From positions 3,233,223 through 3,297,222 of the forward strand of contig NZ_CP053084.1 of NCBI RefSeq assembly GCF_013004065.1: a DNA stretch of 64,000 bases. The letters are read 5' to 3'. Origin of the DNA: Limnobacter sp. SAORIC-580 (lineage in GTDB: Bacteria > Pseudomonadota > Gammaproteobacteria > Burkholderiales > Burkholderiaceae_B). This document shows positions 2,396 through 4,019 of this stretch, piece after piece. How positions within the stretch are numbered: the stretch's first letter is position 1; every line of letters begins with the position of its first letter. The notes below the pieces were generated by a model. The model did no database searches. It was not told where the DNA came from and saw nothing but the letters and a program-made list of their open reading frames with translations. Made by a program: the position numbers and the translations under genes.

Positions 2396-2414
2396 AATTC
2401 GATCAGGCTTTTTT
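2390..2414 (+). terminator. Rho-independent terminator of the Hpt gene
   Basis: Stem GCCTGA / TCAGGC with a 7-nt loop, followed by six T. The left arm contains the TGA stop of the Hpt gene and the right arm contains the stop codon of the convergent hybrid kinase, so both genes end inside the hairpin. There is a T run only in the plus direction. Confidence 0.75.
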
Positions 2415-4019
2415 CAGGTACTTGCCTAACACTTCAATCAGTTTGTCGCGGTCCAGTGGTTTGGTGAGGTAGTCATTCATGCCAGCGTTCAGGCACTTTT
2501 TGTCCTCACCCACCATGGCATGTGCGGTCAGTGCTACCACCGGTATGTTCGGGTTCACACCTGGCACGCTACCACTCCGAATCAATGCAGTGGCCTCGTA
2601 ACCGTCCATCACCGGCATTTGGCCGTCCATCAACACCAAATCAAATGGCTCTTGTGCAAGCAGGTCCACCGCTTCCTGGCCATTGTTGGTCACCTTGCTG
2701 AAAAGGCCGAGGCGCTCAAGCACTTTGCACACCACCATCTGGTTCATGGGTGCATCTTCCACCACCAGAATTTTTCCATGAAATTGCTGCACGGGGGGTG
2801 GTATTTCAGTTTGTGTCGCGAGCGTGGGTTGGGTGGCTTGATCGGTCATGGTTTGAGCAGCCACGGTTTGCAAACCCAGTTTCAGGGAAAACACAATTTC
2901 AGTGCCACGGCCGGGCTCACTGTGCAAGCGCACTTTGCCGCCCATCAGTTCAACCATTTCCTTGACGATTGCCAAGCCAAGCCCGCTACCCTGGGCGCGG
3001 CGCGTGCTGGAGTTGTCGACCTGCGTGAATCGCTTGAACAAGTTTGTTTGATGCTCGGGTGCTATTCCAATGCCAGTGTCTTTCACAGAAAACTCAAGCA
3101 CGGCTTGTTGCGCGGTTCGGGACACTTCCCGGCACACAACCTTCACATGGCCCACATCGGTAAACTTGATCGCATTGCCCACCAGATTCAACAAAATTTG
3201 ACGCATGCGCACCGAATCGCCGAGGTAGGTGGTTTTGGGTAATGTCTCTGCGGGGCATTTCAGTTCAATGCCTTTGCTGTTGGCATCAAAAGCCAGTGCA
3301 GCCTCTACATCGGCGAGCACATCGGCAAGCTCGAGCGGGCTGTGCCGCAGGGTTAATTGCCCACTTTCCACTTTTGAAATATCGAGAATGTCATTCAACA
3401 AGCTAAGCAAGGAGGCTGCGCTGCGTTTGGATGCGGCAGCAAGTTGAAGTTGTTCAGGTTTCAATTCCGTGTCGAGCAACAGATCAAGCGTTCCCAGCAC
3501 GCCGTTCATGGGGGTGCGAATTTCGTGGCTCATGTTTGCCAAAAAAGCAGCCTGCGTTTTTTGAGCCTGCAAGGCGAGTTCTTGGGACTGCCTTAGCGAC
3601 GCTTCGCTTTGACGTCTCGACACAATTTCCTGTGCCAATGCGGTATTAATTTGCGTCAGTTTGCCCAGGTCAGGTAAGGCCATGATGTGTTTTAACTTGG
3701 GCAGTAAATAAATTGCAGTGGCCACTGAGACCAGAGCTGTCACAATTTTGGTAATGCCCTGTGTGTAATACAGCGGCACCCACAAGGTGAGAATGCCCAT
3801 GACATGCGTCACACCACAGGCCAGAATAAATGCAGCGAACAGATAGTAAATGGGCTGCAATTCAGCGTCGGGTCGCTTCTTGGCCACGTACACAATGCCG
3901 ATTGGAATCGAGAAGTAGGCGATGGCAATCAAGAGGTCTGAAATGACGTGCATGGCCAGCAGTTGTGGATTCCACGCAATACAAAAGCCGTGCGGCAGGT
4001 ACTCGATCACATTGTTCAT
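2403..4019 (-). CDS. Hybrid histidine kinase with ethylene-receptor-like (ETR1-type) membrane sensor domain
   Basis: 538 residues. Residues 1-113 contain three hydrophobic helices that align without gaps, at offset +3, to the ethylene-binding domain of plant ETR1 as I remember it: ISDLLIAIAYFSIP (D28, Y35, P39) and FILACGVTH (C68, H72) match ETR1 D25, Y32, P36 and the copper ligands C65 and H69. Then come a coiled linker, HisKA (NMSHEIRTPMNG, H165), an HATPase domain (GNAIKF, DTGIGI, GSGLGLAI) and a canonical receiver (D465 in LMDGQMPVMDG, K520). There is no GAF domain, unlike plant receptors. It is last in a run of four minus-strand genes, 26 bp after a binding-protein gene. The autokinase and receiver residues are intact. 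Ligand binding is inferred, not shown. Confidence 0.9.
   Translation of the reverse strand: MNNVIEYLPHGFCIAWNPQLLAMHVISDLLIAIAYFSIPIGIVYVAKKRPDAELQPIYYLFAAFILACGVTHVMGILTLWVPLYYTQGITKIVTALVSVATAIYLLPKLKHIMALPDLGKLTQINTALAQEIVSRRQSEASLRQSQELALQAQKTQAAFLANMSHEIRTPMNGVLGTLDLLLDTELKPEQLQLAAASKRSAASLLSLLNDILDISKVESGQLTLRHSPLELADVLADVEAALAFDANSKGIELKCPAETLPKTTYLGDSVRMRQILLNLVGNAIKFTDVGHVKVVCREVSRTAQQAVLEFSVKDTGIGIAPEHQTNLFKRFTQVDNSSTRRAQGSGLGLAIVKEMVELMGGKVRLHSEPGRGTEIVFSLKLGLQTVAAQTMTDQATQPTLATQTEIPPPVQQFHGKILVVEDAPMNQMVVCKVLERLGLFSKVTNNGQEAVDLLAQEPFDLVLMDGQMPVMDGYEATALIRSGSVPGVNPNIPVVALTAHAMVGEDKKCLNAGMNDYLTKPLDRDKLIEVLGKYLKKA

What the first reader, a model, noticed from the sequence alone, without database searches (positions are those of the whole stretch)
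2403..4019. Bacterial hybrid kinase with an intact ethylene-receptor-type copper/ethylene site
The three-helix N-terminal domain aligns without gaps to plant ETR1: D28, Y35, P39, C68 and H72 correspond to ETR1 D25, Y32, P36, C65 and H69, all at offset +3. C65 and H69 of ETR1 ligate the copper ion that binds ethylene. The domain sits directly on HisKA/HATPase/receiver without the GAF domain of plant and many cyanobacterial receptors. Ethylene perception is established for Synechocystis and plant receptors; in a heterotroph it is largely unexplored. The ligand here could be ethylene, another alkene or simply copper.
Basis: partly seen in the sequence, partly recalled or inferred. Interest (0 to 1): 0.8.

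Follow-up and report, generated by a model that had tools for sequence, protein, structure and literature searches.

The report
Limnobacter ethylene receptor with phosphorelay partner
This gene in a Limnobacter bacterium very probably encodes an ethylene receptor of the same family as the plant hormone receptor, apparently passing its signal to a small relay protein encoded next door; such receptors are already known in other non-photosynthetic bacteria, so it is a good new member rather than a new kind.

Summary
ORF 2403-4019 (-), 538 aa, matches Pfam ETR1_N (E 2.8e-33), then HisKA, HATPase_c and a receiver, without GAF. The seven residues needed for ethylene binding in AtETR1 are all present (D28, Y35, I38, P39, I65, C68, H72), and K91 too. 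"Without gaps" holds only up to H72. The genome is a Limnobacter.

Ethylene perception in a heterotroph is not unexplored: Azospirillum AzoEtr1 binds ethylene and affects biofilm formation and root colonisation (PMC11819568). The domain is also widespread: 29 of 398 genomes drawn from the phylum.

Added here: (1) a convergent HPt gene (2039-2395 +) lies beside the receptor in 9 of 9 Limnobacter genomes with the receptor at this locus; no ortholog was found in the 7 others. Other neighbours come and go. A Methylophaga relative has an HPt fused. (2) A PHGxC motif before helix 1 is present in 48 of 53 good-scoring homologs with C68 and H72 and in 0 of 7 lacking one of them.

Copper, ethylene binding, phosphotransfer and output are inferred, not shown.

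The parts
2403..4019 (-). receptor hybrid kinase, 538 aa
   Evidence: ORF and Pfam domains
3981..3995 (-). PHGxC motif, residues 9-13 (H10, C13), before helix 1
   Evidence: P9, H10, G11, C13 invariant in the 51-row alignment; association with C68/H72
3678..3962 (-). ETR1_N sensor domain, residues 20-114
   Evidence: Pfam E 2.8e-33; AlphaFold2 helices
3936..3938 (-). D28 (AtETR1 D25)
3816..3818 (-). C68, predicted copper ligand (AtETR1 C65)
3804..3806 (-). H72, predicted copper ligand (AtETR1 H69)
3360..3554 (-). HisKA domain with phospho-acceptor H165 (codon 3525-3527)
   Evidence: Pfam, motif position
2877..3221 (-). HATPase_c domain, residues 267-381
   Evidence: Pfam
2430..2771 (-). receiver domain with D465 (codon 2625-2627)
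   Evidence: Pfam, motif position
2039..2395 (+). stand-alone HPt protein, 118 aa, predicted phospho-His H61; candidate relay partner
   Evidence: Pfam Hpt E 8.1e-6, 26.4 bits against cut-off 24.6, scored on the TTG-start form 2033-2395; co-occurrence
4046..5053 (-). NMT1-type substrate-binding protein SBP1, 26 bases upstream of the receptor; same strand, possibly same transcript, not obligate
   Evidence: Pfam; missing at the locus in 4 of 9 genomes
5159..7876 (-). second hybrid kinase (HAMP, HisKA, HATPase_c, receivers), not obligate
   Evidence: Pfam; missing at the locus in 2 of 9 genomes
7873..8862 (-). NMT1-type substrate-binding protein SBP2, not obligate
   Evidence: Pfam; missing at the locus in 2 of 9 genomes

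Best explanation
A membrane ethylene receptor. The three-helix domain holds Cu(I) through C68 and H72, with D28 placing H72, and ethylene binds the copper (inferred from AtETR1, SynEtr1 and AzoEtr1). Binding acts on the long helix that leads into HisKA and most likely lowers autophosphorylation of H165 (inferred; an inverse-agonist model is described for plant, Synechocystis and Azospirillum receptors in PMC11819568). Phosphate would pass from H165 to D465 in the same protein, then to H61 of the neighbouring HPt, then to a response regulator not identified here. Shown: family membership, intact site, intact phosphorelay motifs, purifying selection on the sensor, and genomic coupling of receptor and HPt at this locus. 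Not shown: copper, ethylene, phosphotransfer, output.
For: ETR1_N far above its cut-off and all seven residues plus K91. Among 8 short-form Limnobacter orthologs, window included, pN/pS (uncorrected proportions) is 0.075 for the sensor, 0.023 for residues 1-18 and 0.041 for HisKA, against 0.165 for the receiver, 0.205 for the HATPase part and 0.68 for the linker 382-413. HPt: beside the receptor in 9 of 9 genomes with the receptor at this locus; no ortholog in the other 7 of 16 Limnobacter genomes. It stays in G008 and G012, where SBP1, the second kinase and SBP2 are absent from the locus, and is missing with the receptor in G001, which has SBP2 and the second kinase. A Methylophaga thiooxydans relative joins ETR1_N, PAS, HisKA, HATPase_c, receiver and Hpt (E 7.9e-12) in one protein; 9 of the 120 homologs listed have a precomputed Hpt domain. 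AzoEtr1, with the same seven residues, binds ethylene (PMC11819568).
Against: No binding or phosphotransfer data can be had here. HPt and receptor are adjacent, so joint presence and loss is partly expected from linkage. G004, G014 and G015 have a receptor elsewhere and no ortholog of this HPt, so the relay is not general in the genus. 4 of 16 Limnobacter genomes show no receptor; two of these are 85% and 65% complete. The HPt domain match is only just over its cut-off. No response regulator for the HPt was identified; the genome has 69 receiver matches, so other partners are possible. No solved relative of the sensor was found by sequence.
Confidence: 0.73

Rival explanations
1. Copper sensor: the domain reports copper itself, and ethylene is at most an accidental ligand.
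For: The predicted C68/H72 site needs copper in the known receptors; the genome has one copper P-type ATPase match (571.9 bits), so copper is handled by the cell, as in nearly all of the 14 control genomes.
Against: All seven residues for ethylene binding, including Y35, I38, P39 and I65, which are not the copper ligands, are kept. None of the 8 neighbours scanned is a copper-handling protein.
Confidence: 0.08
2. Receptor for another small pi-ligand, such as another alkene or carbon monoxide, bound at the copper.
For: Copper(I) sites can bind several such ligands (general chemistry, recalled). The genome has two Phenol_Hydrox family proteins, so hydrocarbon oxidation is conceivable.
Against: Site residues are those that bind ethylene in characterised receptors (PMC11819568, PMC6682694). 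The Phenol_Hydrox genes lie about 2.4 Mb from the receptor.
Confidence: 0.1
3. Ethylene receptor as in the best explanation, but the HPt beside it serves another kinase, or the receptor's own receiver only brakes its kinase, and output goes elsewhere.
For: The genome has 69 receiver matches; receptors outside this locus in the genus lack an ortholog of the HPt; AzoEtr1 works with a stand-alone response regulator (PMC11819568).
Against: 9 of 9 co-occurrence at the locus while other neighbours vary; HPt fused in a relative.
Confidence: 0.2
4. A former receptor whose sensor no longer binds a ligand.
For: Homologs that lost copper ligands but kept the scaffold do exist (7 of 60 good-scoring rows), and one Limnobacter genome has only a remnant.
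Against: Intact site and pN/pS of 0.075 in the sensor.
Confidence: 0.04

Closest known systems
AzoEtr1 of Azospirillum brasilense (PMC11819568)
   Same: ETR1-type ethylene-binding domain with the seven residues on a histidine kinase, in a heterotrophic proteobacterium
   Different: AzoEtr1 (525 aa) has a PAS domain and is paired with a stand-alone response regulator encoded just downstream; ours has no PAS, has its own receiver, and has a convergent HPt gene
SynEtr1 (slr1212) of Synechocystis (PMC6682694 and PMC11819568, passages)
   Same: ethylene-binding domain on a histidine kinase that signals by phosphotransfer
   Different: SynEtr1 is also a light receptor and uses the response regulator slr1213; ours has no domain between sensor and kinase
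AtETR1 of Arabidopsis
   Same: the seven binding residues and K91; histidine kinase and receiver after the sensor
   Different: plant receptors have a GAF domain (PMC8879215 passage), two N-terminal cysteines (PMC6682694 passage) and signal mainly without His kinase activity (PMC11819568 Discussion); ours has no GAF and a single N-terminal cysteine, C13, within PHGxC
Methylophaga thiooxydans homolog (L087)
   Same: ETR1_N, HisKA, HATPase_c and receiver; 64% identity in the sensor, the highest of the named loci outside Limnobacter-like records apart from Limnobacter's own deeper forms
   Different: PAS between sensor and kinase and an Hpt domain fused at the C-terminus

Membership tests
ethylene-binding-domain receptors (Pfam PF25487 ETR1_N) | profile match over the curated cut-off | tested here: met
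   114.5 bits against 27, residues 20-114
ethylene-binding-domain receptors (Pfam PF25487 ETR1_N) | the seven residues required for ethylene binding in AtETR1 | tested here: met
   D28 Y35 I38 P39 I65 C68 H72. That seven are required is in passages of PMC11819568 and PMC6682694; the full list of positions is recalled
ethylene-binding-domain receptors (Pfam PF25487 ETR1_N) | three N-terminal transmembrane helices | tested here: met
   hydropathy and AlphaFold2 helices 18-48, 55-80, 84-113/114
ethylene-binding-domain receptors (Pfam PF25487 ETR1_N) | copper-dependent saturable ethylene binding | not testable with these tools
   needs expression and a radioligand assay
ethylene-binding-domain receptors (Pfam PF25487 ETR1_N) | disulfide-linked dimer through N-terminal cysteines | tested here: inconclusive
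   one cysteine, C13, in this region, as noted for cyanobacterial receptors (PMC6682694 passage); no dimer was modelled
plant-type or SynEtr1-type receptor layout | GAF or other sensory domain between ethylene-binding domain and kinase | tested here: not met
   Pfam finds none at E <= 0.001; sensor ends at 114, HisKA starts at 156
hybrid kinase-HPt multistep phosphorelay | kinase H, N and G boxes, receiver Asp and Lys, and a phospho-His on an HPt | tested here: met
   H165, NLVGNAIKF 278, DTGIGI 314, GSGLGLAI 344, D465, K520; HPt H61; motif names recalled
hybrid kinase-HPt multistep phosphorelay | phosphotransfer from this receiver to this HPt | not testable with these tools
   only co-occurrence and a fusion in a relative

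The most novel reading that the evidence does not exclude
Bacterial ethylene receptors carry a second functional element that I saw described in none of the papers I opened: the PHGxC motif before helix 1 (H10 and C13 here), which is kept or lost together with the buried copper ligands and may capture Cu(I) and hand it to C68/H72, a step that in plants depends on the P-type ATPase RAN1 (recalled). In Limnobacter the receptor further signals through a separately encoded HPt, a multistep ethylene phosphorelay in a bacterium.
Probability: 0.22. Interest if true: 0.6.

Novelty: new member of a known kind. Interest (0 to 1): 0.36.

Why it matters
It adds a genus of betaproteobacteria to those with a probably working ethylene receptor. 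Named, cultured Limnobacter strains exist among the loci, this genome has a single ETR1_N protein, and a candidate relay partner lies next to it, so the path from gas to response regulator can be tested. If the PHGxC motif loads copper, it would bear on how bacterial receptors obtain their cofactor.

Tried and rejected

2. SBP1 or the second hybrid kinase as obligate partner: rejected, since SBP1 is missing at the locus in 4 of 9 genomes and SBP2 plus the second kinase in 2 of 9.

3. Origin by transfer. In the domain tree the Limnobacter short forms and Methylophaga form a fork of 7 rows with 90/88 (not starred); the smallest starred set is 10 rows (95/85). Only 100 columns for 82 rows, so I claim no direction. 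AtETR1 is a long branch (1.92).

4. Rates from named loci. 73 of 80 have all seven residues, but these loci were found with a pattern that includes I65 and C68, so this is no rate.

5. PHGxC. In one search I kept 60 of 69 rows (HMM score over 60) and dropped 9 weak rows. Against the idea: 5 of 53 rows with both ligands lack the exact motif; only 7 rows lack a ligand, two of them (L038, L039) from one genus; one of the 7 (L038) keeps H10 and C13; kinship is not corrected for. Degenerate rows lose other conserved positions too: P9, I31, Y35, T94 and A102 are each kept in 3 of 7 and T101 in 2. C68 and H72 are low there by construction. The simpler reading of C13 is the dimer disulfide suggested for cyanobacteria (PMC6682694 passage). 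'PHGHC' was found in 0 papers, one spelling in one library.

6. Promoter and terminator scan of 1500-9100: 1 promoter-like site against 4.9 expected, 13 terminator-like against 9.8; one of these, 2390-2408, lies between the HPt and receptor stops. No evidence either way.

7. Papers. Limnobacter with ethylene: 30 papers, 15 listed; none of those titles or abstract starts concerns an ethylene receptor. Photochemical ethylene in seawater: 2 papers, listing only, not used. Other searches: listings only except PMC11819568 (abstract, passages, section 6, part 1 of 2 of the Discussion), PMC6682694 and PMC8879215 (passages).

Full report
WHAT IS THERE. The ORF at 2403-4019 on the minus strand is 538 aa with an ATG start. 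Pfam finds ETR1_N at 20-114 (E 2.8e-33), HisKA at 156-220, HATPase_c at 267-381 and a receiver at 417-530, with nothing between sensor and kinase. It is the only ETR1_N protein in the 3,297,222-base genome, of which the window is the last 64 kb. In one search, the 4 rows with 100% identity over residues 1-125 whose source names an organism (P0012, P0014, P0016, P0018) are Limnobacter; the tree puts the domain beside Limnobacter alexandrii.

THE SITE. The seven AtETR1 residues needed for ethylene binding correspond to D28, Y35, I38, P39, I65, C68 and H72, and K91 is kept. The need for seven residues and the roles of C65, D25, H69 and K91 come from passages of PMC11819568; the AtETR1 letters in my alignment, and the full list of the seven positions, are recalled. 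The gapless stretch ends at H72; between H72 and K91 AtETR1 is three residues longer. In a 51-row alignment of full proteins (the window protein and 50 rows picked by me from the 120 listed) all seven residues and K91 are invariant, and so are P9, H10, G11 and C13. Two AlphaFold2 models agree on three membrane helices, and the full-length one shows a long helix (118-182) leading through HisKA.

SELECTION. Across 8 short-form Limnobacter orthologs, window included, mean pairwise identity is 96.6% in residues 1-18, 91.5% in the sensor, 96.0% in HisKA, 79.3% in the HATPase part, 83.1% in the receiver and 28.3% in the linker before it; pN/pS, as uncorrected proportions, is 0.023, 0.075, 0.041, 0.205, 0.165 and 0.68. 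The sensor is among the more constrained parts, which argues that a ligand is still being sensed.

DISTRIBUTION. ETR1_N is found in 12 of 16 Limnobacter genomes including this one, in 0 of 20 genomes from 20 other genera of the family, and in 2 of 24 from the rest of the order. Larger draws, own genome counted where drawn: 29 of 398 genomes of the phylum, 28 over the cut-off; 28 of 385 of the class of G343, another class of the same phylum; 16 of 369 of the window's class, 12 over the cut-off. The draws share some genomes. The family is known and widespread.

THE HPt PARTNER. Downstream and convergent, with 7 bases between the stops, lies a 118-aa HPt protein with a predicted phospho-histidine at 61; the Pfam match is just over its cut-off (26.4 against 24.6 bits). 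Nine genomes have the receptor at this locus (G000, G003, G005, G006, G007, G008, G009, G011, G012), and all nine have this HPt beside it, at 41-80% identity in the eight others. Of the remaining seven, three have a longer receptor elsewhere (G004, G014, G015) and four have none (G001, G002, G010, G013; G002 and G010 are 85% and 65% complete); none has an ortholog of the HPt, the one match in G004 being 23% identical and on another contig. Other neighbours are looser: SBP1 is missing at the locus in G007, G008, G009 and G012, and SBP2 plus the second hybrid kinase in G008 and G012. G001 has penicillin amidase, SBP2, second kinase, thioesterase and DUF218 in a row without receptor, HPt or SBP1; in G004, G014 and G015 none of the queried genes lies between penicillin amidase and thioesterase. 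In G013 (250 contigs, 91% complete) a receptor remnant of about residues 1-38 abuts the thioesterase gene and the HPt is gone; this may be a real deletion or an assembly fault. A relative from Methylophaga thiooxydans carries PAS and, at its C-terminus, an Hpt in the same protein (E 7.9e-12), and 9 of the 120 homologs have a precomputed Hpt domain. Together this makes it most likely that the receiver of this kinase hands phosphate to this HPt. Linkage inflates the co-occurrence, so I put this step at about 0.75.

ARCHITECTURE WITHIN THE GENUS. G007 at the same locus, and G004, G014 and G015 elsewhere, have forms with about 660-680 aligned residues and an extra stretch between HATPase and receiver. 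Pfam counts two receiver stretches in the G004 protein and one in the G015 protein. The 538-aa form lacks that part.

OTHER LAYOUTS. Of 80 named loci, a search with the window's own kinase and receiver segments finds kinase plus receiver after the sensor in 36, kinase without receiver in 32 and neither in 12; some ORFs are cut by contig ends. 13 of the 80 have sensor, kinase and receiver in an ORF under 620 aa, 5 of them Limnobacter or Burkholderiales records of this clade; other domains were not checked there. So the compact layout is not unique.

PHGxC. In the profile-found set (loci kept), 45 of 49 rows with D28, C68 and H72 have PHGxC just before helix 1, against 3 of 20 without. In the 60 rows with HMM score over 60, 48 of 53 with C68 and H72 have it, against 0 of 7 lacking one (Fisher 2e-6, kinship not corrected). 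In those 7 rows I65 is kept in 1, and H10, C13, P39, C68 and T101 in 2 each, while F64, W80 and A95 are kept in 7 and G11, D28, T71, K91, S98 and P116 in 6. H10 and C13 thus go with the site more than with the scaffold, on few cases. A single N-terminal cysteine is on record for cyanobacterial receptors as a possible disulfide (PMC6682694 passage). That the histidine is kept nearly as often as the cysteine (51 and 52 of 53) suggests more than a disulfide, for example capture of Cu(I); this is a hypothesis.

RELATION TO WHAT IS KNOWN. AzoEtr1 binds ethylene through its first 130 residues and carries the seven residues (PMC11819568 section 6); [quoted passage not shown] SynEtr1 signals by phosphotransfer to slr1213 (PMC6682694 passages). 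Our protein is a member of that family with its own receiver and, probably, a separately encoded HPt.

VERDICT. Real, well identified and probably functional; ordinary as a family member, with two testable additions, the HPt relay and the PHGxC motif.

Noticed in passing
4046-8862 (-): Two NMT1/SsuA-type substrate-binding proteins flank a hybrid kinase; none of the 8 proteins scanned around them is an ABC permease or ATPase, which suggests SBPs that feed the kinase rather than transport. SBP2 and kinase overlap by 4 bases.
   Followed up: partly
L081:9521-9634: Receptor remnant (about residues 1-38, 87% identity) abutting the thioesterase gene in Limnobacter genome G013, with the HPt missing: a joint deletion or an assembly fault.
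   Followed up: partly
L047, L044, L052, L053: Longer receptor forms carry an extra stretch between HATPase and receiver; Pfam was run on two of the four and counts a second receiver stretch in L044 only.
   Followed up: partly
genome C1:822293-824265 (-), outside the window: Two Phenol_Hydrox (PF02332) proteins, a possible multicomponent hydrocarbon monooxygenase; whether it acts on alkenes is unknown.
   Followed up: no
L044:5280-7019 (-) and L044:9213-9755 (+): In G004 another hybrid kinase follows the receptor, and a divergent protein with a weak, sub-threshold receiver match precedes it, instead of the HPt.
   Followed up: partly
L038, L039, L182, L183, L188, L195, L196: ETR1_N homologs that lack C68 or H72 but keep W80, F64 and A95, and in 6 of 7 K91; they may sense something else.
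   Followed up: partly
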